DNA of 64,000 bases, from positions 62,001-126,000 of the forward strand of contig NZ_JANZNR010000006.1 in assembly GCF_025153525.1 (NCBI RefSeq), written 5' to 3'. Below the pieces are notes generated by a model, which was given only the letters and a program-made list of their open reading frames with translations, ran no database searches and had not been told where the DNA came from. The position numbers were made by a program, and so were the translations under genes. Source of the DNA: Psychroserpens sp. SPM9 (lineage in GTDB: Bacteria; Bacteroidota; Bacteroidia; Flavobacteriales; Flavobacteriaceae). Below, piece by piece: positions 2,284 to 57,739 of this stretch (the first letter of the stretch is position 1; every line of letters begins with the position of its first letter).

Positions 2284-4125
2284 ATGAGCATCTTTAAATA
2301 CTTAGTTATTAGTATCGTTTCTCTCACTACTTTAACTTCGTATGCTCAAGATATTGAATTATTTCAACAATTTAATGGTCGCTATGACTATACAGCAATA
2401 GGAAATACACTCAATCCTTTTGAAAATAATCTGGATCAAAGTTTTTGCTTTCCTTTAGAATCGTCTAGTGCAACCTTAAATATAGCACCTTCAGCAACAG
2501 TCATTGCTGCCTATCTTTATTGGGCTGGTTCTGGCACAGGAGATACGAATGTGACATTAAATGGAATGTCTATTGATGCCGAAGCCACGTATACTGTTGA
2601 TTATACGGAACCGTTTTCAGAAACACTCACCTATTTTTCTAGTTATGCCAATATCACCGATTTTATAATAGCGCAAGGCAATACAACTTATGAGCTATCT
2701 GATTTAGATATTACTGATGTGCTGACCAATACTACTGGATACTGTGACAATAGAACCAACTTTGCCGGCTGGAGTATTTATGTGATTTTTGAAGATGATA
2801 GTTTACCTTTAAATCAACTCAACCTTTATCAGGGTCTCGAAATTATTAATAGAAATAATCAGGAAAAAACCATTGTTATCGACAACCTCAACGTTATTGA
2901 TAATGAAGGTGCAAAAATTGGATTTCTAGCCTGGGAAGGTGATAATGCACTAAATTTTGGAGAACGTTTATCTATAAATGACAATGTGTTATCCAATCCG
3001 CCATTGAATTTAAGCGATAATGCATTTAACGGCACCAATAGCTTTACCAATTCGAGCACATTTTACAATGCCGATTTAGACGTTTATAATATTCAGGATA
3101 ATATCAGTATTGGAGATACAAGCGCAACCATCAAAATGACTACAGGCGCTTTTGATCAATTTGGAATTTTTAGAGCCGATTTAATTATCATTAATAATAT
3201 TGTCACTGTATTAAACAGTCAGCTACCCGATGCCACTATTGCACTAGATAGTTATATGATTAACTGTGGCGACAGAACGCTAGCCTTAGATTATACTGTA
3301 TTCAATACCAATAGTACCGATCCATTACCTGCCCAAACCCCTATTGCTTTTTATGCGGAAGGCCAGCTTATCGGACAATCACAAACGCAAAATGAGATTG
3401 CCATAAATGCTTCAGAAAGCGGTACGATTACTTTAATGCTTTCTGAAAATATTTCTGATGTCTTTCTTCTTACCCTAGCAGTTGATGACGATGGAACTGG
3501 CAACGGAACTATTCTGGAAATCATAGAAATTAATAATATTGATGATGCTATCATCGAACTACTTGTTGTGCCTCCAGCTCAATCGATACCTGGAGAACTA
3601 GCTTGTAATGAAGGTTTCAGCAGCGCTACTTTTAATTTGATTGCTATTCTTCAAAACACTATAAATTCTGATAACGAGCCTGTTTTTTATGAAACCTTAG
3701 CCGATTTAGAGTCTGATACCAATGACATTCTAAATCCTGAAACTTATGCTTCGATTGGAAACCCTCAAACCCTATACGCCAAAATTGATAATCCGCCTTG
3801 CTACGATGTTTATACTTTTGAATTGTCTGTAGAAAATTGCCCACCATATGTTCCTCAAGGCTTTTCACCTAATAATGATGGTATTAATGACTGGTTTAAC
3901 ATACAGGATTTATATGATATTTTTGAAGCTCATGAACTCAAAATTTTTAATCGTTATGGCACTTTAGTTTTTGAAGGCAACAATGATAAAAAATGGAACG
4001 GATTTATAAATCGTGGTTTAAATAATCATGGTAAATTAGTTCCTGTTGGCACCTATTTTTACGTGCTTAACCTCAATGACCCAAATTTTGAAAACTTAAT
4101 TGGCTGGGTTTATGTCAATTATTAA
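2284..4125 (+). CDS. T9SS type B sorting domain protein
   Basis: 613 residues with a signal peptide (about 1-21, ending SYAQ). The N-terminal half has AYLYWAGSG and NFAGWSIYVIFED motifs typical of a secreted beta-sandwich region (DUF3344-like, tentative). A CARDB-like segment lies around residues 310-430, followed by one degenerate copy of the module found in the neighbouring genes (ACNEGFSSATFNL). The C-terminus (FSPNNDGINDWF, IFNRYGTLVFEG, VPVGTYFYVL) is a type B sorting domain of the more usual 'SPNNDG' subtype and differs from the 'FFTPNGD' subtype of its three neighbours. It starts 37 nt after the previous gene and is probably cotranscribed with it. A secreted or surface role is well supported; a specific function is not. 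Confidence 0.85.
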   Translation: MSIFKYLVISIVSLTTLTSYAQDIELFQQFNGRYDYTAIGNTLNPFENNLDQSFCFPLESSSATLNIAPSATVIAAYLYWAGSGTGDTNVTLNGMSIDAEATYTVDYTEPFSETLTYFSSYANITDFIIAQGNTTYELSDLDITDVLTNTTGYCDNRTNFAGWSIYVIFEDDSLPLNQLNLYQGLEIINRNNQEKTIVIDNLNVIDNEGAKIGFLAWEGDNALNFGERLSINDNVLSNPPLNLSDNAFNGTNSFTNSSTFYNADLDVYNIQDNISIGDTSATIKMTTGAFDQFGIFRADLIIINNIVTVLNSQLPDATIALDSYMINCGDRTLALDYTVFNTNSTDPLPAQTPIAFYAEGQLIGQSQTQNEIAINASESGTITLMLSENISDVFLLTLAVDDDGTGNGTILEIIEINNIDDAIIELLVVPPAQSIPGELACNEGFSSATFNLIAILQNTINSDNEPVFYETLADLESDTNDILNPETYASIGNPQTLYAKIDNPPCYDVYTFELSVENCPPYVPQGFSPNNDGINDWFNIQDLYDIFEAHELKIFNRYGTLVFEGNNDKKWNGFINRGLNNHGKLVPVGTYFYVLNLNDPNFENLIGWVYVNY

Positions 4126-41103: not shown

Positions 41104-41129
41104 TGTACCCCTTTTGTCTTACCCTAAAA
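41104..41129 (+). promoter_or_regulatory. TACCCC/TTTTG element upstream of TPR-LuxR gene
   Basis: TGTACCCCTTTTGT (41104-41117) runs into TGTCTTACCCTAAAA (41115-41129), 51 nt before the ATG at 41181. The first half is identical to 46393-46406, before the convergent surface operon; the second half matches 14/15 bases with the element before the beta-helix gene (57775-57789). A TATATTTA sequence at 41153-41160 may be the -7 box, putting the element in an upstream activator position. Confidence 0.55.
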
Positions 41130-41180
41130 ACACAACTGACATATAATAATATTATATTTAGGTGATTAGAATTCAATCCT

Positions 41181-43046
41181 ATGAAATTTTCAACACAACT
41201 CAATATTTTAGCTTTGGTTTTATCAATGCTATTAAGTGCCCAAGAGCAACAGAAAATTGATAGCCTTACTCAGGTTATTAAAACCACAACAGCTGACAGC
41301 ATTAAAGCGTTAAATCATTTAAAGATTGCCCAGCTTTTAATGTATAAAGATTCTGAGGAAACGAAAACAAATATTTCTGCAGCAGAACACCTCTACAAAA
41401 AGTCAACTAATTTAAAACAATTAGCCAATCTAAATAGTGTCAAAGCCGAGTATATGTTTACGCAAAACAAATATGACTCTGCGATGGTATTTGTTGAAAA
41501 GTCTGCAAATCAATTCCTAAAGAACGGTGATAGCATAAAAGGAGCAACCTTAAAATCTAACTTGGCAAATTTAGTTAAAGTACTCACTAGTGATTATGAT
41601 CGCATACAATCTATATATGATGAAATTGAACCAATTGCGTTATCACATAAGGATACCGCGTTAATAGCCATTGTTCTCTCTGGCAAAGCTGATATAGCCT
41701 TACATAAAGGCCATAGAAATATCGCAATAGAGCTCACGAAAAATACGATTAACCTTAGAGAAGCTCAAAATGATTCTTTAAGAATTCCACAGGAGTATTT
41801 CAAAATTGGCAAAATTTATCAAGAGTTATTCGACTTTAAAGAATCTATTACAAATTTTGATGAAGGTATTGCCATTGCCGACGCCTCAAATAATTTCAGA
41901 ATTAAAGCAGAGCTTTTAAGAATCAAAGGAACTTCTCTAATTAAACTGAAGCAATTTGACAATGCAGAAAAAAGTCTTCTTGAAGCTTTAGACCTTTCTA
42001 AAACGACTAATTTAAAGACGAGTGAATTACAAACCTTAATCATATTAGGATTACTCGAAGTTGATCGTGATGATCTTGAAAAAGCCGAACATTATGTGAA
42101 TTTAGCCAAATCTATGATGAACCCTGTAAATGCCTATAATGTAGATTATAATTATAATTTAATTCGTGGTCAAATTGAATTAGGGAACAAACAATATCAA
42201 AAGGCACTCACACATTTTGAAAACTGCGTTGAACTAGCAGAAAAAAAAGGAGCTTTAGTCAACTTAAGCTTTTCTAAAAAATTCAAATCGCTGGCTTTAG
42301 AAAAGCAAGGTGATTATAAGCGGGCCTTAGCATTGTATAAAGAAAGTAGCGACGCTAAAGACACTTTAACTTCCCAAATGAGGACTTCTTTATCTATAGA
42401 ACAAAAGATAATTTATGAAACCGAAAAGAAAGAAAAAGAAATTTTATTACAGAAAAAAGATTTAGAAATTTTACAACAAAAAGAAGCGACAAGTAAACTT
42501 CGAAATAATGCGTTAACTATTATTATAATTGGGTTACTTATCATATTTGGGTTATTGTTTTATGCGATAAAACAAAAAATGAAGAAAAATAAAATCTTAA
42601 GAGAAAACTTAGATAAAGATTTAGAACATAAAACTAAAGAATTAACCACTCATGCACTGCATTTAGCCAAAAAGAACGAAGTTTTAAACGATTTAAAACA
42701 AAAAGCTAAAGTTTTAAAAGCCGATGCCAATGCCGACCCTGGTTACCAAATGCTCATACAAACTATTAATTTTGACTTACAAGACGATAATAACTGGGAA
42801 AATTTTTCACGATATTTTGAGCAAGTTCATAAAGACTTCAATGCCAAAGCCCAGGAACAATTTCCTAATATTACCAAAAATGATTTACGTTTAATGGCGC
42901 TTTTAAAAATGAATCTATCATCAAAGGAAATTGCAAATATTTTAAATATTTCTAGTGATGGTATTAAAAAAGCCAGACAACGTCTTCGTAGAAAAATGGG
43001 ATTAGAATCTAAAGATTCTTTAGAAACTGTAATATTAAGTATATAA
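41181..43046 (+). CDS. TPR-containing, membrane-anchored LuxR-type regulator
   Basis: 621 residues. A signal-like N-terminus (MKFSTQLNILALVLSMLLSAQ) is followed by TPR-type helices outside the cytoplasm (about 25-410), a membrane helix (NALTIIIIGLLIIFGLLFYAI, about 445-465), a cytoplasmic coiled coil, and a LuxR/GerE-type helix-turn-helix near residues 570-606 (MNLSSKEIANILNISSDGIKKARQRLRRKMG). The family is a one-component sensor-regulator common in Bacteroidota, in which the exported TPR part is thought to sense a protein or ligand. It converges with a three-gene surface operon (stops one base apart) that shares its upstream element. Confidence 0.9.
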   Translation: MKFSTQLNILALVLSMLLSAQEQQKIDSLTQVIKTTTADSIKALNHLKIAQLLMYKDSEETKTNISAAEHLYKKSTNLKQLANLNSVKAEYMFTQNKYDSAMVFVEKSANQFLKNGDSIKGATLKSNLANLVKVLTSDYDRIQSIYDEIEPIALSHKDTALIAIVLSGKADIALHKGHRNIAIELTKNTINLREAQNDSLRIPQEYFKIGKIYQELFDFKESITNFDEGIAIADASNNFRIKAELLRIKGTSLIKLKQFDNAEKSLLEALDLSKTTNLKTSELQTLIILGLLEVDRDDLEKAEHYVNLAKSMMNPVNAYNVDYNYNLIRGQIELGNKQYQKALTHFENCVELAEKKGALVNLSFSKKFKSLALEKQGDYKRALALYKESSDAKDTLTSQMRTSLSIEQKIIYETEKKEKEILLQKKDLEILQQKEATSKLRNNALTIIIIGLLIIFGLLFYAIKQKMKKNKILRENLDKDLEHKTKELTTHALHLAKKNEVLNDLKQKAKVLKADANADPGYQMLIQTINFDLQDDNNWENFSRYFEQVHKDFNAKAQEQFPNITKNDLRLMALLKMNLSSKEIANILNISSDGIKKARQRLRRKMGLESKDSLETVILSI

Positions 43047-43047
43047 C

Positions 43048-45168
43048 TTACATATCTTTAATAATAGCTCTCAAATTATCTAGTAAATAATTCTTGTCTG
43101 TAACCACTCGATTTGTTTGCTCATATAATTTGTAATTGACCTTTTTAGCATCTAGATATGCTCTGGCATCTGCTAAAATACCTTCAATAACATCCGGATT
43201 TTCCTCCAAAAAGCTCAAAATAAGCTCAAATTTACTTTTTGTCGTTGTATACTCGCCATTAGCAATATGTGTTTGATTCTCATTATCGCTGTTGACAACT
43301 TCATTGTCTCTATTTGTGTATTCTGATAAATTAAAAAATTCTGCATCAAAATTAGGGTCTTTTTGTTTTAAATATAAAACAATAGCACTCACTTCACTTT
43401 TAAGCATATTGATTTCATCTTGCTGCTGTTCTAAAAGTTTTAATGTATCATTTGTATTAATTCCAACAGCTAAATTAATATAGGAAATGCCTCTAGCATC
43501 AGACTCAGACCAAGCTACTCCTACTATAGTTTTATAGTGTTCTACAGTCATGTTTTTAGGTGAAACTGCTCTCCCAATACCATCATTTAATCCTGATGGA
43601 ATTATATAATCTCCAATAGATACTTTTCCTAAAACCTTTACAGGTATTTGTCCCATAAATGCGATTTTCTCAAAATCTTTTTCTCTGTTGTTTTCTGGCA
43701 TATTGCCCAAAACGATTGGGTTTTTTGAAACCACCATAAAATGATCTGCAGTAGTAGTGTTTTTGGTTATTTTACCACCAGAAACTCCAACAATATCTCC
43801 ATAGCTGAATATTTCATTTACATCTTTTTTTTCTAACCACTCTGCATAATCTCCAAATCCAGATTCAAAAGCAACTCCTACATTGTTTTGCATATGAACT
43901 CTAAGAACAACCCAATTAGCAATCATATCTACCATTTCAAAACCTTCAATAGCAGCAGCATCAAAATCATCAACACCAAAAAGATCTGCAGTTACCATTG
44001 CGAGTTGAAAACCAGTTTCTAAACCTTCTTGTGTTTGATTCCAAATAAAAGGGAAACTACTAGTCAATTCGTTATTGGTTTGACCTTCTATACGACCATA
44101 TATGATATTATTTGCACCTTTAAACGACAGAAAATTATTTCCATTATTTGGTGTTCCTCCTGCTGCATTACCATTAAGTTCAATAGTAATACCTTGTTTA
44201 CTACCTTTAACCCATAATGGATATGCTGTTGGAAATAAGTCACCACCTGCATCATCAACATTAGTATCGATAATAACTCTCCCATTTAGAAAACTATTAG
44301 CATTTACAAACAACGTATTATTTAAAGTTGTAGTCCCATTAACATTTAAAAGATTTGATAGATTTGTTGCTCCACTTGCAGTCAACGTATTTAATAAAGA
44401 ATTTTGATTCACCGTTATATTGTCAAAAATACCATCTGCAAAATTAGAAGTTCCTAAAACATTCAAATCACCTTCTAAAAGCGAATTACCAGCAACCGTT
44501 AAATCTGAATACAAATTAGTATCGCCTCCTACAGCTAATTCTCCATCAAAACTAACCAAACCATCCACAGTCAAGTCTCCAGTTAGGTAAGTAGGACTTT
44601 GATTATTGACTGTTAAATTAGAATTTAAGTCTGTAGTTCCATCCGTGGTTAAGCTTCCTGATAATAGTGTCGGACTAGCATTATTAACGGATAAACTATT
44701 ATTTAAATTGGTAGCGCCATCGACATCTAAGGTTGACGTTGCGATAATTTCTCTATGTCTTATGTAAGGGATATACGTTAGCTTTTGGTAGCTAAATTCT
44801 ACAAAACCGTTACCATCAAAAAGATCTATTTCTACTCGCAAGAACTTTTCGTTATCCCAATATACCTGATTGAACGTCGTTAATGTTTCAGACGTCAATT
44901 CACCTTGACCGATCATTAAATTGATCATTCCAAAAGCGTCAGTTTCGGTATCTTGCGTCTCTTGATACTCAATTTGATTGGTATTATCAATAATGCTAAA
45001 TCGGACTTTCAATGCCGTATTAGGTAAGTTATTTGATGGCACATCAACGCCTGGTATTTCTTGCGGATTATTATCTATAATTACAGCCTGATAACTAATA
45101 CCATCGGTCTGCCCATAGCTCAATATACCAATGAGCATAACTAAAATAAAGGATACATGTTTTTTCAT
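43048..45168 (-). CDS. Secreted tail-fibre-like repetitive protein
   Basis: 706 residues with a signal peptide (MKKHVSFILVMLIGILSYGQ). After a beta-rich head (about 20-135) come 10 or so short repeats of the form 'ATNLNNSLSVNNASPTLLSGSLTTDGTTDLNSNLTV' (about 140-290), typical of thin beta-helical fibres. The region FGDYAEWLEKKDVNEIFSYGDIVGVSGGKITKN...VVSKNPIVLGN (about 440-500) resembles the intramolecular-chaperone/autoprotease (peptidase G2-like) part of phage tail proteins (tentative). The tail has a coiled coil (LEQQQDEINMLKSEVSAIV) and no T9SS domain. Last gene of the operon. Confidence 0.7.
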   Translation of the reverse strand: MKKHVSFILVMLIGILSYGQTDGISYQAVIIDNNPQEIPGVDVPSNNLPNTALKVRFSIIDNTNQIEYQETQDTETDAFGMINLMIGQGELTSETLTTFNQVYWDNEKFLRVEIDLFDGNGFVEFSYQKLTYIPYIRHREIIATSTLDVDGATNLNNSLSVNNASPTLLSGSLTTDGTTDLNSNLTVNNQSPTYLTGDLTVDGLVSFDGELAVGGDTNLYSDLTVAGNSLLEGDLNVLGTSNFADGIFDNITVNQNSLLNTLTASGATNLSNLLNVNGTTTLNNTLFVNANSFLNGRVIIDTNVDDAGGDLFPTAYPLWVKGSKQGITIELNGNAAGGTPNNGNNFLSFKGANNIIYGRIEGQTNNELTSSFPFIWNQTQEGLETGFQLAMVTADLFGVDDFDAAAIEGFEMVDMIANWVVLRVHMQNNVGVAFESGFGDYAEWLEKKDVNEIFSYGDIVGVSGGKITKNTTTADHFMVVSKNPIVLGNMPENNREKDFEKIAFMGQIPVKVLGKVSIGDYIIPSGLNDGIGRAVSPKNMTVEHYKTIVGVAWSESDARGISYINLAVGINTNDTLKLLEQQQDEINMLKSEVSAIVLYLKQKDPNFDAEFFNLSEYTNRDNEVVNSDNENQTHIANGEYTTTKSKFELILSFLEENPDVIEGILADARAYLDAKKVNYKLYEQTNRVVTDKNYLLDNLRAIIKDM

Positions 45169-45178
45169 AGTTGTCGTA

Positions 45179-45829
45179 TTATAAAGTACAATTACAACTT
45201 GGCAGACTTATGATTAAGCCAATACCAAATTGATGATTATTTAGTTTTAAAGATTCTTGATCCAACGTTTTATTCCCATCTATGAGAACCGTTTTTCCGT
45301 AGGTATAACTGGCGATTAACGCGGTATTTCGCGATATAGGATATTGCATCCCAAGTCCGGCTCTGGCAAAAAAAATGTAATTATTAAATTCATCTTCACC
45401 AACCAAATTAAACACCTGATTGTTTAGTGTTTGCGTACCTCTAATAAGATATTCAACAGCGACTCTTCCTTTGAGATAAAACGAAAAATCGCGTAAAGCG
45501 AAAAGCTTAAAATCTAATCCAGTATTTAGTCCTAGGTAAGTAACATCCCATTCAAAGTAATTATCCAAAATACGATCACTACCAATCGCACCATAACCGT
45601 TATATATGATACCTAAAGACAAGAACAATGTTTTGTTTTTATTAAGTACATCTCGGTATCCTATTTCCATATACGTATTAGGCTTGGATAGTAAATTGTC
45701 TAATGGTTCTCCTGACGAATTTTTATAGTCAAATCCTGATGTTGATTTACCTATTTCCACAAATAATTGTTGACCAGACAATTGCAAAGTCACAACAAAA
45801 CATAACATAAGTAGTATTGTAGATTTCAT
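45179..45829 (-). CDS. Outer-membrane beta-barrel protein
   Basis: 216 residues from the ATG at 45829. An upstream in-frame start (45853) would overlap the previous gene, and M9 begins the signal peptide MKSTILLMLCFVVTLQLSGQ. The mature part has amphipathic strands (YMEIGYRDVLNKNKTLFLSLGIIYNGYGA, WDVTYLGLNTGLDFKLFALRDFSFYLKGR, YPISRNTALIASYTYG) and ends HQFGIGLIISLPSCNCTL. It is a small porin-like barrel and probably anchors or exports the fibre encoded next. Middle gene of the three-gene surface operon; one base after the T9SS-A gene. Confidence 0.75.
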   Translation of the reverse strand: MKSTILLMLCFVVTLQLSGQQLFVEIGKSTSGFDYKNSSGEPLDNLLSKPNTYMEIGYRDVLNKNKTLFLSLGIIYNGYGAIGSDRILDNYFEWDVTYLGLNTGLDFKLFALRDFSFYLKGRVAVEYLIRGTQTLNNQVFNLVGEDEFNNYIFFARAGLGMQYPISRNTALIASYTYGKTVLIDGNKTLDQESLKLNNHQFGIGLIISLPSCNCTL

Positions 45830-45830
45830 T

Positions 45831-46328
45831 TTACCTTTTGATAATTTTAGCAACGAATCGTTTTTCTCGCATGACTACATTTAAAAGATATACACCACTT
45901 GTTATATCGTTTAATTCTATGGATAAAGATGAGGAAGGATTATATGTTTCAGATAGTACGATGCGACCAGTCAAATCAGAAACATAAATATTCAGTTCGT
46001 CAAAAATAGGTTCTCTAAAGTTTATCGTAATGGTTTCAGAAAATGGGTTTGGAAAAATAATAGCATCTATTAAAGTATTAGAATCACTATTAAGTAATGA
46101 CGCATTTATAGGCTGAAGAAACCCTTGTCTTAAACTGTAATTTCCAGTATCAAAAGTTTTAATAACACTCGCTTGCCCAATACTCTCTTGAATGAAGTAG
46201 CTTTTATTATTAGCATAAACAAAATGAGAACTCCCTTGATTGGTAAGTGTTTCTTTTTTAAGAGTTTGTGCAAAACCTACACTGTAAAATAAAACGCATG
46301 CAATTAAAAAACGAAGATTATGAGACAT
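45831..46328 (-). CDS. Small T9SS type A sorting domain protein
   Basis: 165 residues from the ATG at 46328, which starts the signal peptide MSHNLRFLIACVLFYSVGFAQ; the upstream TTG at 46370 is unlikely. The mature N-terminus (QSSHFVYANNKSYFIQESIGQASVIKTFDTGNYSLRQGFLQPIN pattern) is a short beta domain seen in many flavobacterial surface proteins, and the C-terminus (IIFPNPFSETITINF, LNIYVSDLTGRIV, ITSGVYLLNVV) is a type A T9SS sorting domain. It is exported and attached to the cell surface. First gene of the operon; the shared regulatory element lies 65 nt upstream. Confidence 0.85.
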   Translation of the reverse strand: MSHNLRFLIACVLFYSVGFAQTLKKETLTNQGSSHFVYANNKSYFIQESIGQASVIKTFDTGNYSLRQGFLQPINASLLNSDSNTLIDAIIFPNPFSETITINFREPIFDELNIYVSDLTGRIVLSETYNPSSSLSIELNDITSGVYLLNVVMREKRFVAKIIKR

Positions 46329-46392
46329 AGCTATTATTTTGTTAATAGCTAATTTAAGCTGCTTTTTCAAGCATCAAAAGCAAATAATAAGA

Positions 46393-46415
46393 TGTACCCC
46401 TTTTGTACCCTCTAA
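46393..46415 (-). promoter_or_regulatory. TACCCC/TTTTG element upstream of surface operon
   Basis: On the plus strand TGTACCCCTTTTGTACCCT spans 46393-46411; on the operon's coding strand it reads as a direct GGGTACAAAAGGGGTACA repeat. Its first 14 bases are identical to the element before the TPR-LuxR gene. Its distance to the operon start at 46328 is 64 nt. Confidence 0.55.
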
Positions 46416-51745: not shown

Positions 51746-54700
51746 CTAATCTAAAATTAATTTATGCGTCACAGAATTGTTATCTGAAGTGATATTCAAA
51801 AGGTATATTCCTGAAGCCATTCCATCAATATTAATCGTATTCAATCCCGTAGTAAGTGTTGTTTGCTTTACTAATTTTCCAGTAATTGAAATCACTTTCA
51901 AGTCAATATCATTTGAAACTGAAGTTCCAATTTCGATATTAAACACTCCTGTTGTAGGATTAGGATATACGCTTAATACAGCTGTTTCATTAAAATCGGT
52001 AACCGATAATACTGTTTGAGATTCGTAGGCACCAATATCTCTGGCGATACCAAACACAGGTTGACCAATTTGATCTGTAAACGTATCTGTAGCGTCACCA
52101 GCATCAAAGGCAGGTGAGTTATTTAATAATTGATGAGTTAAAGTCGAACCACCATTATTTTGTAATGGTCCAATAAGCGGATCAACTCCTTCTTGGTCAT
52201 TGGTTTGTGGCGTAAATACATTTAAATCATCAGATCCAATAAGATTGTAATCATTAGAAGTTAAGGATCCAAAAACGTCTGTTCCCGAACTTGCTGAGTT
52301 TAATGCTACAATTGTATTCTTTAATGACACATCGTTATTAGCTTCAATTCCGCCTCCATTTCCTGCCGCAGTATTCATCACAACAGTTACAGCGTTTAAA
52401 TCTAAACTAGCACCATTATTTGTAAGTCCGCCACCAGAAACAGATGCCGTATTACTTGAAATCGTACTGGTCATCACAGTCGTAATCGCTCCTGTATTAT
52501 TATAGATTCCACCACCTTCTCCTGCAGTATTGTTATCTACAGTAGATGATGACACTGTCATAGTCGTTCCATTTTGGTTCCATAAACCACCACCTTCATT
52601 CGCTGCAGAGTTACCTGTAACTGTACTTGTAGTAATTGTAACTGTACCTGAATTTCCTGTAATATGGAGTCCACCACCATTTCCAGGCGCAGGTGAACCA
52701 GCACCACCATTAACATCATTACCAACCATCACAGAATTTGTAAACGTTAATGTTCCGTCAATAATTTCGATAGCACCTCCTGCTCTGTTAGCTGCATTAG
52801 ACTCAAAAGACGAATCTGTAACAGTAACGTCACCAGCCGTACTTAATAATCCACCACCAGAAGCTGAAGCTCCAATTGATGTATTATTAGAAATTACGGT
52901 TCCATTTGTAATATTAAGAGTACCACCATTATTAAAAACACCAGCGCCACCGTCATCTGCGGCATCACCTAAAGCTAAATTAGAATCGATGGTTACAGCA
53001 TCTAAAGTCATGACTCCAGAACCATTCCATAAGCCACCACCTTCACGACTTGCCGTATTTTCATTTACCATACCTCCAGTAATGTTAGAATCTCCAGGTC
53101 CAGTGATATGCAAACCACCTCCATTTCCTGGAGCAGCACCTGTAGAATTATTTAACATATTGGTATTGGTTAATGTTAATATGCTTCCTGAAATCGAATT
53201 TTCTTCAATGGCTCCACCAGCTCTAACCGACATATTATTACTTAATTCAGAATCGATAACAGAGAGTGTTCCCATATCATTTAAGATTCCTCCTCCAGAA
53301 CCAGCAGTTCCAGCAGCATCATTATTACTAATCACTGTTCCGTTTTGAACAATTAATGTACCTCCAGCGTTAAAAATTCCGCCGCCACCATTATCGGCAG
53401 CATCTCCATTTGCAGTATTATTATCAATGGTCGTTCCATCAACAATCATCAACCCTGTTCCATTCCATAGTCCACCACCTTCAAGAGCGGCAATATTTCC
53501 ATTAACTGTACCGCCTGTAACAGTTGAGTTTCCAGGACCAGTGATATGTAAACCACCACCATTTCCTGGAGCTGAACCTACTGTATTATTATCTAAATTA
53601 GTATTCATTAATGTAATAGTTCCAATGGCGACAGTTGAATTATCTTCAATTCCACCACCAGCTCTATTGGCTGAATTTCCACTAATTGACGAATCTGAAA
53701 CCATTACAGAACCACCATCTACATTCTGAATTCCACCTCCAGAACCTGAAGTTCCACCAGCTAAATTACTCGTAATAAGTGTTCCATTTTGAACGATAAG
53801 TATTCCGCCGTTATTAAAAATTCCACCACCACCATTATCGGCAGCATCTCCATTAGCGGTATTATTTTCTAGGGTAACAGCATCAACAGTCATTGTCCCT
53901 GAACCATTCCATAAGCCGCCACCTTCAGAAGCCGCTGTATTATTATCAACAGTTCCGTTAGTAACGCTCACCATGCTATTTCCACTCACATGAAGTCCAC
54001 CTCCATTTCCGGGAGCTCCTGCTCCTGTTACCACACCAGTTTCATTAAAATCTAAACTAACATTGGTAAGTGAAACTGCACCAGCACCATTGGTTTCTAT
54101 TCCGCCACCAGCTCTATTAGACTGGTTGTTCAAGATTGAAATTCCATTAGCCGTTAACGTACCCGCAGCATTTAAGATTCCACCGCCTGTAGATTGAGCT
54201 CCATCAGCAATGTTATTCGTAATAGCTGTTGAACCTGATAAATCAAGAGTTCCACCTTCGTTAAAAACACCTCCGCCTCCAGCGGCTCCAGGCGTCATCG
54301 CATCATTTCCAGATGCTGTGTTTCCATCTACAATATGATCTACCAGTATCATAATCCCTGAACCATTCCAAAGTCCACCACCTTCATTAGCAGCCGTGTT
54401 TCCATTTGTAGTTCCGCCATTAATAGTGGCATTACCAGAACCAGTGATATGTAAACCACCTCCATTTCCTGGAGCAGCACCTGTAGAATTATTATTCAAA
54501 GTAACATTTGTTAATGTGAGTGTTCCGGAAGCCAAGGTCGAATTATCTTCAATTCCGCCTCCAGCTCTATTGGCTGAATTATTCGTAATCGTTGAATTTG
54601 AAATGGATACTGTTCCTCCAGCTACGTTTTGTATACCACCACCAGAACCCGATGCGCCATCAGCCATATTATTGATAATAGTTGTTCCATTTTGAACGAT

Positions 54701-57700
54701 CAACGTTCCGCCGTTATTAAAGATTCCGGCGCCACCATCATCTGCTGCATCACCACTAGCTGTATTTCCATCGATATTTGTTCCATCAACAGTCATAGTA
54801 CCAGACCCATTCCATAAGCCACCACCTTCTCGTGCAGCAACATTATTATTAACCGTTCCTCCTGTAATATTAGAATCAGCTGCACCTGTAATATGGAGTC
54901 CGCCTCCATTTCCGGGAGCAGAACCCGTCGTATTAGAATCTAGAATTGAATTTGTAATATTTAAAGTACCTTCTATAATTTCGATACCACCACCTGCACG
55001 ACTTGAAGTGTTTGTCGTTATTTCTGAAGCATCGATAGTCACCACACCTGCAGTTGACAGGATACCACCACCTGAGCCAGAAGCTCCAGTAGCCGTATTA
55101 TTTGTGATTCTTGTTCCTCCAATTACATTTAACGTTCCGCCATTATTAAAAATTCCTGCGCCACCATCATCTGCTGCCGCACCAATTGCTGAATTTCCTG
55201 AAATGGTTGTTCCATCAACAGTCATTGTTCCTGAACCATTCCATAATCCACCACCTTCACGCGTCGCAGAATTGGTATTAAATGTACCACCAGTTATAGT
55301 CGCATTTGCAGCACCTGTGATATGAAGTCCGCCACCATTTCCTGGCGCAGAACCTGTTACATTTGAATTAACAGTAGAATTTGTAATATTTAGAGTTCCT
55401 TCGATAAGTTCGATTCCTCCACCAGCACGATTAGAAGCGTTATTGTTAATTAGTGAAGCCTCTATGGTAACAACACCTGCGGTTGAAAAAATTCCACCTC
55501 CAGAACCTAAAGCGCCATTTGCATCGTTATTTGTTATGCTTGTTCCACCTATGACATTTAGGGTTCCTCCATTGTTAAAGATTCCCGCACCACCATCATC
55601 AGCAGCAGCTCCTTGAGCAATATTACTGTCTATAACAGTTCCATTAACTGTCATGGTACCAGACCCATTCCATAAGCCGCCACCTTCACGACTTGCCGTA
55701 TTACTATTCACAGTTCCCCCTAATATATTAGCATCAGCGGCACCAGTGATATGTAAACCACCTCCGTTTCCGGGAGCAGATCCCGTCGTATTAAAGTCTA
55801 AAGTTGTATTTATTAGTATTAAGTTTCCTTCAATTAATTCAATTCCACCACCAGCGCGGTTAGACGAATTATAGGCAACCCATGAGGTATTAACCGTTAC
55901 GCTTCCGTCGGTACTCAAAATACCTCCACCAGAACCTGAAGTTCCCGTAGCCACATTATTAGTAACTGTTGTTAAATTTTGTAAGACTAAAGTTCCGCCA
56001 TTATTGAAAATTCCGCCGCCTCCAGTATCTGCATCTGGACCTTGGGCATCATTCCCATCAACTAATGTATTATCGATAGTCATGGTTCCTAAATTATTCC
56101 ATAAGCCACCACCTTCAGAAGCTGCAAAATTAAAAGTAATTGTACTATTATTAATTGTAGCATTCGTCGTACCAGATAAATGAATAGCGCCACCATTTCC
56201 TGGGTTAGGCATAATTGTATTCCCTAATCCTATATCAACACCAGCAGCATTTCCAGTTAAAGTTATACCGTCTAAAGTTAAAGTCCCTTCAGAACTATCT
56301 TCAATGGCACCACCAGCTCTACTCGCATAATTCCCAGAAATTGTTAATCCGTTAGAAAGATTTAAAACACCTCCTGTATTATTGAATATGGCACCACCAC
56401 GACCACCTGGCGTACTAGCACTAGCTATATTTCCAGTAAGCGTTGTTGCATTATCAACATTAAGTGTTCCGCCATTATTAAAAAGGCCTCCACCACCTGT
56501 AGCATCACCTGTAGCTGTATTATTAGTAACGGTTGTTCCGTTAATTGACATTACACCAACACTATTCCATAAACCTCCACCTTCAAAAGCGGTATTGTTT
56601 GATACTGTTCCGCCATTATAAATAACATCACCAGCTCCAGAAATATGAAGTCCGCCACCATTTCCTGGTGCTGGTCCATTTACTGTATTTCCAATTAATG
56701 ATACATTATTGAAAGTATAAGTTTCACCAACGGCAGAATTAATTTCAATTCCACCACCTGCTCTATTAGCTGTATTATTCTCGATTGTAAGTCCGTCAAC
56801 ATTCAAAGTCCCTGGAGTCAATGTAAAAATTCCGCCTCCAGAACCTAAAGTTCCTGAAGCAGTATTATTTGAAATTGTTGTTCCGTTTTGAACGATAAGT
56901 GTTCCTCCATTGTTGAAGATACCTCCACCGCCATCATCACTTCCGTCACCTTGAGCATCATTATTTTGGATTATCATACCATCAACAGTCATGGTTCCGA
57001 AGCCATTCCAAAGAGCGCCACCTTCACGTGCTGCACTATTTCCACTAGCCATACCTCCTGTAATATTTACTGAACCGTTGCTAGATACATGAATACCGCC
57101 ACCATTTCCAGGAGCCGCTATAGCTGGTGATACACCAGCATTATTATTTAACAAGGATACATTATTGAGCGTTGTTGTTATGGTGGCACCACCAGCTGTT
57201 TTGTCTTCAACACCACCACCAGCTCTATTGGCTGTATTTGATGATATTTCAGAATCATTAACCACTAATATTCCACCAACATCGTTAAAAATTCCACCAC
57301 CAGAACCAGCAGGAGAACCCGTGGCATTAGCTACATTGTTGGAAATAATACAATCATTAATAATTACTGTGGCATTGGTCATATAAATACCACCACCATC
57401 GGGTGCAACACCATTAGTTAATGTTAAATCATTTAAAGTGACGTTTCCAGAAGTAATATTAAATATTCGTCCATTAGAATTGGCATCAATAACCACAGTT
57501 GATGAAGGCGTACCTGTTATGGTAAGATCCTTATCAATTAAAAGTTCACTGTTTAAAGTGACCGTAGTAACCGATGGCATAAATGTAATGGTTCCACCCA
57601 TAGGTGTATCTGCGATTTCATTTCGCAATGTTCCGTCTGTTCCATCATCGGCACCACTTGTAACAATTTGTGCGAATGAATGTGTTGAAATAAAAAATGC

Positions 57701-57739
57701 TATTGCAAAGGCAATACCAAGAGTAATTTTGTTTCTCAT
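51746..57739 (-). CDS. Giant right-handed beta-helix T9SS type A protein
   Basis: 1,997 residues with a signal peptide (MRNKITLGIAFAIAFFISTHSFAQ). A parallel beta-helix of Gly/Asn/Thr-rich rungs fills the molecule, organised in about eleven superrepeats of ~150 residues, each with signatures such as GGGLWNGSGTMTVDGT, GGAGIFNNGGTL, SNRAGGGIE and APGNGGGLHITG. A choice-of-anchor Q-like segment (NSPAFDAGDATDTFTDQIG..ARDIGAYES) precedes the type A T9SS sorting domain (SVYPNPTTGVFNIEIG, VISITGKLVKQ, MASGIYLLNI). It is a T9SS-exported cell-surface or released fibre, probably an adhesin. It is monocistronic with its own terminator, and its upstream region shares an element with the TPR-LuxR gene. 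Confidence 0.9.
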   Translation of the reverse strand: MRNKITLGIAFAIAFFISTHSFAQIVTSGADDGTDGTLRNEIADTPMGGTITFMPSVTTVTLNSELLIDKDLTITGTPSSTVVIDANSNGRIFNITSGNVTLNDLTLTNGVAPDGGGIYMTNATVIINDCIISNNVANATGSPAGSGGGIFNDVGGILVVNDSEISSNTANRAGGGVEDKTAGGATITTTLNNVSLLNNNAGVSPAIAAPGNGGGIHVSSNGSVNITGGMASGNSAAREGGALWNGFGTMTVDGMIIQNNDAQGDGSDDGGGGIFNNGGTLIVQNGTTISNNTASGTLGSGGGIFTLTPGTLNVDGLTIENNTANRAGGGIEINSAVGETYTFNNVSLIGNTVNGPAPGNGGGLHISGAGDVIYNGGTVSNNTAFEGGGLWNSVGVMSINGTTVTNNTATGDATGGGGLFNNGGTLNVDNATTLTGNIASASTPGGRGGAIFNNTGGVLNLSNGLTISGNYASRAGGAIEDSSEGTLTLDGITLTGNAAGVDIGLGNTIMPNPGNGGAIHLSGTTNATINNSTITFNFAASEGGGLWNNLGTMTIDNTLVDGNDAQGPDADTGGGGIFNNGGTLVLQNLTTVTNNVATGTSGSGGGILSTDGSVTVNTSWVAYNSSNRAGGGIELIEGNLILINTTLDFNTTGSAPGNGGGLHITGAADANILGGTVNSNTASREGGGLWNGSGTMTVNGTVIDSNIAQGAAADDGGAGIFNNGGTLNVIGGTSITNNDANGALGSGGGIFSTAGVVTIEASLINNNASNRAGGGIELIEGTLNITNSTVNSNVTGSAPGNGGGLHITGAANATITGGTFNTNSATREGGGLWNGSGTMTVDGTTISGNSAIGAAADDGGAGIFNNGGTLNVIGGTRITNNTATGASGSGGGILSTAGVVTIDASEITTNTSSRAGGGIEIIEGTLNITNSILDSNTTGSAPGNGGGLHITGAADSNITGGTVNNNVAAREGGGLWNGSGTMTVDGTNIDGNTASGDAADDGGAGIFNNGGTLIVQNGTTIINNMADGASGSGGGIQNVAGGTVSISNSTITNNSANRAGGGIEDNSTLASGTLTLTNVTLNNNSTGAAPGNGGGLHITGSGNATINGGTTNGNTAANEGGGLWNGSGIMILVDHIVDGNTASGNDAMTPGAAGGGGVFNEGGTLDLSGSTAITNNIADGAQSTGGGILNAAGTLTANGISILNNQSNRAGGGIETNGAGAVSLTNVSLDFNETGVVTGAGAPGNGGGLHVSGNSMVSVTNGTVDNNTAASEGGGLWNGSGTMTVDAVTLENNTANGDAADNGGGGIFNNGGILIVQNGTLITSNLAGGTSGSGGGIQNVDGGSVMVSDSSISGNSANRAGGGIEDNSTVAIGTITLMNTNLDNNTVGSAPGNGGGLHITGPGNSTVTGGTVNGNIAALEGGGLWNGTGLMIVDGTTIDNNTANGDAADNGGGGIFNAGGTLIVQNGTVISNNDAAGTAGSGGGILNDMGTLSVIDSELSNNMSVRAGGAIEENSISGSILTLTNTNMLNNSTGAAPGNGGGLHITGPGDSNITGGMVNENTASREGGGLWNGSGVMTLDAVTIDSNLALGDAADDGGAGVFNNGGTLNITNGTVISNNTSIGASASGGGLLSTAGDVTVTDSSFESNAANRAGGAIEIIDGTLTFTNSVMVGNDVNGGAGSPAPGNGGGLHITGNSGTVTITTSTVTGNSAANEGGGLWNQNGTTMTVSSSTVDNNTAGEGGGIYNNTGAITTVMTSTISSNTASVSGGGLTNNGASLDLNAVTVVMNTAAGNGGGIEANNDVSLKNTIVALNSASSGTDVFGSLTSNDYNLIGSDDLNVFTPQTNDQEGVDPLIGPLQNNGGSTLTHQLLNNSPAFDAGDATDTFTDQIGQPVFGIARDIGAYESQTVLSVTDFNETAVLSVYPNPTTGVFNIEIGTSVSNDIDLKVISITGKLVKQTTLTTGLNTINIDGMASGIYLLNITSDNNSVTHKLILD
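52350..57400 (-). repeat. About eleven ~450-bp imperfect superrepeats in the beta-helix gene
   Basis: The 'GGGLWN' landmark occurs eleven times at roughly 150-residue intervals, with the same order of sub-motifs in each unit. Central units are most alike at the DNA level (recurrent plus-strand CCATTCCATAAGCCACCACC and CCACCATTTCCTGGAGC), which points to recent unequal exchange in the middle of the array. Confidence 0.8.

What the first reader, a model, noticed from the sequence alone, without database searches (positions are those of the whole stretch)
41104..46415. Shared element links a TPR-LuxR regulator to the convergent surface operon
TGTACCCCTTTTGT occurs 51-77 nt before the TPR-LuxR gene (41104) and again, identical over 14 bases, at 46393 upstream of the T9SS-A / barrel / tail-fibre operon that converges with it. 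Identical promoter-proximal elements on a membrane-anchored DNA-binding regulator and its convergent neighbour suggest autoregulation plus control of the operon, with the exported TPR domain as sensor. I know of no described system with this layout, though I could not search for one.
Basis: partly seen in the sequence, partly recalled or inferred. Interest (0 to 1): 0.72.

Follow-up and report, generated by a model that had tools for sequence, protein, structure and literature searches.

The report
Membrane regulators with matched DNA operators
A flavobacterium carries a membrane-spanning sensor-regulator whose own promoter and a nearby surface-protein operon share a rare DNA signal, and relatives show several versions of that signal, each tracking one amino acid in the regulator's DNA-reading helix.

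Summary
TGTACCCCTTTTGT occurs twice in the window, and its 12-base core only at these two places in the 3.8-Mb genome. The operon copy is a complete direct repeat, TGTACCC-N4-TGTACCC (period 11), 54 bp before a -7-like box. The copy before the TPR-LuxR gene keeps one half-site, 49 bp before a -7 box; this form stands before 8 Gln-type regulators, the window's included. In relatives most such regulators have a period-11 repeat nearby, in flavours that track one residue of the DNA-reading helix: Gln with TGTACCC, Tyr with TGTCCAC, Asn with TGTCACC. Among 89 regulators 69 are concordant, none discordant, 1 is a tie and 19 lack a site. The own genome also holds a Tyr-type paralogue with Tyr-type sites. 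Sensor domains have been swapped between DNA-reading heads. Fixed spacing to the -7 box suggests activators. Targets are T9SS surface operons, apparent lipoproteins and, in two relatives, cytolysin-like proteins, many behind a covarying leader RNA without an Rfam match. Whether the single residue sets specificity is likely but confounded with ancestry.

The parts
41104..41124 (+). Upstream element of the regulator gene: TGTACCC + CTTT + TGTCTTACCC (one intact half-site, second half decayed)
   Evidence: same form 77-89 bp before the ATG of 8 Gln-type regulators, this one included
41153..41160 (+). -7 box (TATATTTA) 49 bp after the start of the upstream element
   Evidence: Same 49-bp spacing in 8 of 8 loci that carry the upstream element
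41181..43046 (+). TPR-LuxR regulator, 621 aa: signal peptide, TPR domain, one transmembrane helix, cytosolic part, LuxR-type HTH
   Evidence: TPR_12 2.3e-17; GerE 3.7e-05, 23.7 bits against cut-off 23.5; signal peptide and transmembrane helix read by eye
42507..42569 (+). Single apparent transmembrane helix (aa about 443-463), basic residues on its C-terminal side
   Evidence: Read by eye from the sequence; alignment
42873..43016 (+). LuxR/GerE helix-turn-helix (aa 565-612)
   Evidence: Pfam; AlphaFold model (pLDDT blocks 86-93 there); Foldseek
42978..42980 (+). Codon of Gln600, the residue that tracks the operator flavour
43048..45168 (-). Third gene of the convergent operon: 706-aa tail-fibre-like protein with Peptidase_G2/IMC domain
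   Evidence: PF11962 2.8e-06, 27.4 bits against cut-off 25
45179..45832 (-). Second gene of the operon: 217-aa outer-membrane beta-barrel
   Evidence: PF13505 1.9e-06, 28.6 bits, just under the cut-off 28.7
45831..46331 (-). First gene of the operon: 166-aa protein with T9SS C-terminal sorting domain
   Evidence: PF18962 1.5e-12
46349..46356 (-). -7-like box (TAAATTAG) of the operon, 54 bp after the operator start
   Evidence: Same offset in 9 of 9 T9SS-A-first operons counted
46393..46410 (-). Complete operator: direct repeat, period 11, GGGTACA-AAAG-GGGTACA in operon orientation (TGTACCCCTTTTGTACCC on +)
   Evidence: in the genome no other match at 0-2 mismatches

Best explanation
The window holds one member of a family of membrane-anchored, one-component regulators. 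A periplasmic TPR domain, a single transmembrane helix and a cytosolic LuxR/NarL-type helix-turn-helix are in one chain. Two protomers probably bind head-to-tail to an 18-bp direct repeat with an 11-bp period (one helical turn), placed at a fixed distance upstream of the -7 box, and activate transcription. Here the Gln-type regulator binds the complete TGTACCC repeat before the T9SS-A / barrel / tail-fibre operon and, more weakly, the one-and-a-half-site element before its own gene. Shown: the elements, their rarity, their fixed spacing, and their match to the helix residue across relatives. Inferred: binding, activation, the signal sensed, and that the residue itself (Gln, Tyr or Asn, in the slot of NarL Lys192, numbering recalled) sets which repeat is read.
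For: Repeat count without a named motif: perfect 7-base direct repeats within 400 bp of 89 regulators peak at period 11 (64 of 89; every other period from 6 to 30 at most 5). Flavour against residue, sites within 500 bp at up to 2 mismatches: Tyr-Tyr 44, Gln-Gln 22, Asn-Asn 3, discordant 0, tie 1, none 19, of 89. Of 60 helix-turn-helix columns only this one predicts the flavour in 72 of 72 (next best 69; majority 44); three of the 72 (window, L140, L148) were added by hand because their site lies beyond the convergent operon. Spacing: -7 box TANNTTTR exactly 50 bp after the site start in 56 of 67 sites behind regulators, 54 bp in 9 of 9 T9SS-A-first operons, 49 bp in 8 of 8 upstream elements. 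Own genome: the Tyr-type repeat at up to 2 mismatches has 2 places (0 and 1 mismatch), both at the Tyr-type paralogue, while its reversed control has 6 places at that looseness; the Gln-type repeat is exact only in the window, then nothing before 3 mismatches (12 places, control 17). Of 397 family genomes, 14 Gln-type sites (control 1) and 16 Tyr-type sites (control 0), 13 and 15 of them with a matching regulator in the fetched stretches. L109 and L113 hold both types in tandem, each with its own site. T9SS-A homologues: of 11 wider stretches (L122-L132), 10 have neither repeat nor family regulator.
Against: No binding or expression data. In most relatives the operator lies about 50 bp after the part of the gene that encodes the DNA-reading head, so linkage alone could keep the two together. 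On the cytosolic-domain tree Gln/Tyr changes only 4 times, with 1 well-supported independent pair, so the residue cannot be separated from its clade. One Tyr-type regulator (L153) has an Asn-like half-site upstream of its gene. 19 of 89 regulators have no site in their flanks. Some sites have no family regulator in the fetched stretch: L107, L115, L057, L058, L131. Only 12 of 28 T9SS-A homologues have a repeat within their 3.4-kb locus, so this is one control among others for such operons. Gln-type regulators with Pro before the helix Gly use another form, AGTATACCATTTGTCTCCC (4 of 4), so other residues matter too. Two Asn-type sites in genome G117 have no close family regulator beside them. 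None of 5 barrel-first operons shows the -7 pattern at 54 bp.
Confidence: 0.82

Rival explanations
1. The element and the regulator type travel together only because they are physically linked and descend as one cassette; the element is read by some other factor or is a passive promoter part.
For: In most relatives the site lies about 50 bp behind the end of the regulator gene; on the cytosolic-domain tree the types change only 4 times; a few sites have no family regulator in the fetched stretch.
Against: Sites on the far side of the swapped sensor, or beyond the operon, still match: upstream heptamers Gln-Gln 9, Tyr-Tyr 9, Tyr-Asn 1, no Gln-Tyr cross; window, L053 and L054 have the site upstream of the convergent operon. 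Both T9SS-A operons of the own genome carry the flavour of the regulator beside them. Spacing to the -7 box is fixed in both orientations.
Confidence: 0.12
2. The regulator is a repressor that blocks these promoters until the periplasmic signal arrives.
For: Nothing in the sequence fixes the sign of control; membrane one-component regulators of both kinds exist (general knowledge).
Against: The site lies upstream of the -33 region at constant spacing in 56 of 67 sites, and by eye the -33 region is a T-run without a conserved element, which suits an activator that replaces a weak -33 contact.
Confidence: 0.2
3. The shared 14-mer is chance.
For: Shuffles of the window give at least 2 matches with up to 2 mismatches in 9 of 100.
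Against: Both copies are exact, the 12-base core occurs only there in 3.8 Mb, and both are conserved at the same positions in other species.
Confidence: 0.01

Closest known systems
NarL/FixJ and GerE LuxR-type DNA-binding domain (DosR, NarL, GerE)
   Same: HTH fold: sequence matches are weak but gapless through the helix in the DosR and GerE alignments shown (E 0.018-0.1); structure matches at probability 0.97-1.00 though E-values are above 0.05. The variable residue falls in a helix slot recalled as base-contacting in NarL (Lys192).
   Different: No receiver domain; the HTH sits behind a transmembrane helix and a periplasmic TPR domain; the sites are asymmetric period-11 direct repeats.
MalT (LuxR-type activator with a helical-repeat sensor; recalled)
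   Same: Helical-repeat sensor plus LuxR HTH, asymmetric direct repeats, activation (recalled).
   Different: MalT is a cytosolic ATPase (recalled); here no ATPase domain appears in the Pfam scan and the protein has a signal peptide and a transmembrane helix.
ToxR/CadC-type membrane one-component regulators (recalled)
   Same: Periplasmic sensor and cytosolic DNA-binding domain in one chain.
   Different: Opposite domain order, winged-helix DNA-binding domain, no TPR, no flavoured operator family known to me.
CDC-like toxins of Bacteroidota (PMC11169675; start of abstract, passages)
   Same: Two genes behind such repeats in relatives (L106, L118) match Thiol_cytolysin PF01289.
   Different: The main text of that paper contains neither LuxR nor tetratricopeptide; no such gene is in the window operon.

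Membership tests
LuxR/GerE HTH proteins (PF00196) | GerE HTH domain at the C-terminus | tested here: met
   aa 565-612, 23.7 bits, cut-off 23.5; Foldseek to DosR, NarL, GerE
NarL/FixJ response regulators | N-terminal receiver domain with phospho-acceptor Asp | tested here: not met
   Pfam finds TPRs, no receiver domain
MalT / LAL regulators | N-terminal STAND ATPase domain | tested here: not met
   No ATPase domain in the Pfam scan; TPR_MalT match below its cut-off (34.3 against 45 bits)
Quorum-sensing LuxR | Autoinducer-binding domain | tested here: not met
   No such domain
Membrane one-component regulators | Extracytoplasmic sensor, one transmembrane helix, cytosolic DNA-binding domain | tested here: inconclusive
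   Signal peptide, TM and HTH order read by eye from the sequence; topology not measured
T9SS cargo (operon gene 1) | C-terminal sorting domain | tested here: met
   PF18962 1.5e-12
Rfam RNA families (leader RNA of relatives) | Match at gathering score | tested here: not met
   Five loci and the window, 0 matches; one leader at relaxed threshold gave two chance-level matches only

The most novel reading that the evidence does not exclude
A plug-and-play signalling toolkit: interchangeable periplasmic sensors joined to a small set of mutually insulated DNA-reading heads. One helix residue (Gln, Tyr or Asn, with Pro before the Gly as a further variant) chooses among period-11 repeats TGTACCC, TGTCCAC, TGTCACC and the AGTATAC/TGTCTCC form. 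Each head drives its own surface or pore-forming cargo from a promoter of fixed geometry, often with a second control layer in a structured, possibly switch-like leader RNA.
Probability: 0.5. Interest if true: 0.85.

Novelty: new variant of a known kind. Interest (0 to 1): 0.72.

Why it matters
Bacteroidota encode many membrane regulators whose targets are unknown. Here operator, target and a candidate specificity residue can be read from sequence for a whole family, which makes the regulons predictable and the DNA-reading code testable in one gel-shift series. If right, it also gives naturally orthogonal, membrane-coupled regulator-promoter pairs, and evidence that sensors and DNA-reading heads recombine freely.

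Tried and rejected
Order-level search for cousins with other helix residues: my script parsed only 3 of the 30 loci, two of them the own genome's family members; the one cousin (L223) had no repeat. The Asn-flavour scan was meant as a blind test: of 5 sites in 4 of 397 genomes, 3 are the Asn-type loci already known and 2 in G117 have no close family member beside them. G117 has only distant cousins (best 2.1e-38), among them two with Asn in the slot and others with Ser, Tyr or His, so it is not a clean confirmation. An independent test of the residue on the DNA-reading-domain tree failed for lack of events (1 starred pair, 3 in all). Leaders: 17 of the 62 extracted were left out of the alignment by eye (near-duplicates, leaders cut short by an early ATG call, and divergent ones such as L150, L155, L162, L165, L187, L199, L201), so the covariation figures describe the 45 kept. 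The window has no leader RNA (best E 0.26). Paper searches gave no listing that suggests a described TPR-LuxR operator system: no paper; four, one, eleven papers, seen as listings only. No NarL residue paper (none). Six loci were dropped by the helix pattern; read separately, three have a site and all three match their residue (L143, L160, L174), two Tyr-type have no site (L151, L154), one has no helix found (L152). Of the 11 background hits (1.2 million positions scanned), six are explained by other calls (L140, L148, L157, L143, L160, L174); the five about 900 bp before Tyr-type regulators (L135, L136, L137, L139, L142) were not followed.

Full report
What is there. TGTACCCCTTTTGT is exact at 41104 and 46393, and its 12-base core occurs nowhere else in the 3.8-Mb genome. 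The second copy is longer than reported: TGTACCC-CTTT-TGTACCC, a direct repeat with an 11-bp period; no other place in the genome matches it within 2 mismatches, and the 12 places at 3 mismatches are at control level (17). The first copy keeps TGTACCC and then reads CTTTTGTCTTACCC. The regulator (621 aa) has TPRs and a LuxR HTH, with a signal peptide and one transmembrane helix by eye. The converging operon encodes a T9SS-sorted protein, an outer-membrane barrel and a tail-fibre-like protein with a Peptidase_G2/IMC domain.

A paralogue gave the key. The same genome holds a second module on contig C37, a T9SS-A operon divergent from a TPR-LuxR. Its intergenic region carries TGTCCACCCTTTGTCCAC, the same period-11 layout with two positions changed in both half-sites. 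At up to 2 mismatches that form occurs in the own genome only twice (0 and 1 mismatch), once between the divergent genes and once just after the regulator, before an apparent lipoprotein gene; the reversed control has 6 places at the same looseness.

Family-wide. In 397 family genomes (drawn evenly from a larger group) the Gln-type repeat has 14 sites in 12 genomes (reversed control 1) and the Tyr-type repeat 16 sites in 14 genomes (control 0). I fetched regions around them. 13 of 14 Gln-type sites have a regulator with helix KKARQ or KKSRQ in the stretch, and 15 of 16 Tyr-type sites have one with KKARY. The exceptions are G125:C2 (L107) and G196 (L115), with no family regulator in the stretch; for G091 the Tyr-type regulator is seen in the named copy L207. 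L109 and L113 contain both types, each with its own repeat. T9SS-A homologues are not all under this control: 12 of the 28 found have a repeat within their 3.4-kb locus, and of 11 wider stretches around others, 10 have neither repeat nor family regulator and one (L131) has a repeat without a regulator in the stretch, as have L057 and L058.

Test without a named motif. One scan of named genomes gave 77 loci. In 71 of these plus the window, 89 regulators were recognised: Tyr 54, Gln 31, Asn 3, His 1. Counting perfect 7-base direct repeats in 400-bp flanks, period 11 stands out (64 of 89 regulators, all other periods from 6 to 30 at most 5), and the words sort by residue: GTGGACA with Tyr, GGGTACA with Gln, GGTGACA with Asn, the last a flavour I had not looked for. 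With best sites at up to 2 mismatches: 44 Tyr-Tyr, 22 Gln-Gln, 3 Asn-Asn, no discordance, 1 tie, 19 without a site. The window is among the 19 because its complete site is before the operon, 3.3 kb away. Of 60 helix-turn-helix columns only this residue predicts the flavour in 72 of 72; others reach 69 at most. Six loci missed by the helix pattern were read afterwards: three have sites and all three match.

Residue or clade? Trees were built (quick method) from 82 of the 89 regulators. On the sensor-domain tree the type changes 15 times and the site flavour 12 times, on the cytosolic-domain tree only 4 and 3 times. So sensors are exchanged between DNA-reading heads: apart from its sister L133 (99% and 98%), the window sensor is 44-46% identical to three Tyr-type proteins but 23-29% to four Gln-type proteins whose cytosolic parts are 93-96% identical to it; two other Tyr-type sensors are at 24-25%. 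On the sensor tree 11 of 11 supported independent pairs have residue and site changing together (p 0.00098), but linkage weakens this, because the site usually follows the gene's 3' end. Sites on the other side of the gene are the better evidence: upstream heptamers give Gln-Gln 9, Tyr-Tyr 9, one Tyr-Asn half-site (L153) and no Gln-Tyr cross. On the cytosolic tree only 1 supported pair exists, so I cannot separate the residue from its clade. Sequence alignments to DosR and GerE are weak but gapless through the helix, and the AlphaFold model (mean pLDDT 74.7) matches DosR, NarL and GerE folds at probability 0.97-1.00, with E-values above 0.05. The variable residue falls in the slot of NarL Lys192, which I recall as base-contacting.

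How it probably works. The distance from repeat to -7 box is fixed: 50 bp in 56 of 67 sites behind regulators, 54 bp in 9 of 9 T9SS-A-first operons where the repeat is reversed, and 49 bp in all 8 upstream elements of Gln-type regulators, the window included. None of 5 barrel-first operons met the box pattern at 54; of four further promoters listed, two have a box at 54 (L060 second site, L120) and two do not (L114, L115). The repeat is thus centred near -52, and by eye the -33 region is a T-run. I read this as activation. In the window: strong site, operon; weaker one-and-a-half site, own gene. DNA binding, the signal and the sign of control are not shown.

Targets and a leader RNA. Genes behind such promoters in relatives include T9SS operons, apparent lipoproteins without a Pfam family, an LRR-T9SS protein in the same operon type and, in L106 and L118, proteins matching Thiol_cytolysin. 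CDC-like proteins of Bacteroidota have been shown to kill bacteria (PMC11169675; start of abstract; passages, whose counts show no mention of LuxR or tetratricopeptide). Of 62 leaders between -7 box and ATG, 45 were aligned. They share a fold with 97.4% of cells paired, 41 cells changed on both sides against 9.7 expected from shuffles (0 of 500 as high), and at most 50% paired when slid. Five loci scanned match no Rfam family. The strand GUUUUGUGG can pair with CACAAAAC in the hairpin or with a second CCACAAAAC beside the start codon, which would suit a switch; the second pairing was not tested. The own genome has one such leader, on C37 (E 4e-17, with a weak opposite-strand match at the same place); the window has none.

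Verdict. Its larger meaning is a family of sensor-swapping membrane regulators with matched, mutually distinct operators. I found no description in the searches listed under Tried and rejected; the library holds only open-licence papers.

Noticed in passing
L133-L209 (45 leaders in alignment A4), own genome C37:23590-23708: Covarying structured 5' leader RNA, about 120 nt, between the -7 box and the ATG of many genes behind these repeats; no Rfam match in the loci scanned; two alternative partners for the GUUUUGUGG strand suggest a switch.
   Followed up: partly
L106:8515-10461, L118:8117-9694: Genes matching Thiol_cytolysin (PF01289) lie directly behind a Gln-type and a Tyr-type repeat; regulator control of cytolysin-like proteins is implied.
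   Followed up: partly
L161, L185, L202, L109:12390: Gln-type regulators with Pro before the helix Gly carry AGTATACCATTTGTCTCCC instead of the TGTACCC repeat (4 of 4).
   Followed up: partly
L180, L204: Tyr-type regulators followed by TGTCTAC repeats, a one-base variant of TGTCCAC.
   Followed up: no
L107:8403 (G125); L115, L057, L058, L131: Repeats without a family regulator in the fetched stretch; L107 stands before an apparent lipoprotein gene, a possible target in trans of the Gln-type regulator elsewhere in that genome (L108).
   Followed up: no
L049:6977-7474: Tyr-type regulator of only 165 aa as called, without the TPR part, beside a TGTCCAC repeat.
   Followed up: no
L247:9640, L248:9625 (G117): Asn-type repeats before very large proteins (1,202 and 2,236 aa), each followed 33 bp on by a second repeat-like element, without a close family regulator beside them.
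   Followed up: partly
window 51746-57739: 1,997-aa repeat-rich protein with a T9SS sorting domain, near the module.
   Followed up: no
L047 against window: In the sister genome G001 the place of the converging operon is taken by a 558-aa apparent lipoprotein gene and a 408-aa gene behind the same repeat.
   Followed up: partly
L135, L136, L137, L139, L142 at about 3960-4010: A further TGTCCAC-N4-TGTCTAC element about 900 bp before Tyr-type regulators.
   Followed up: no
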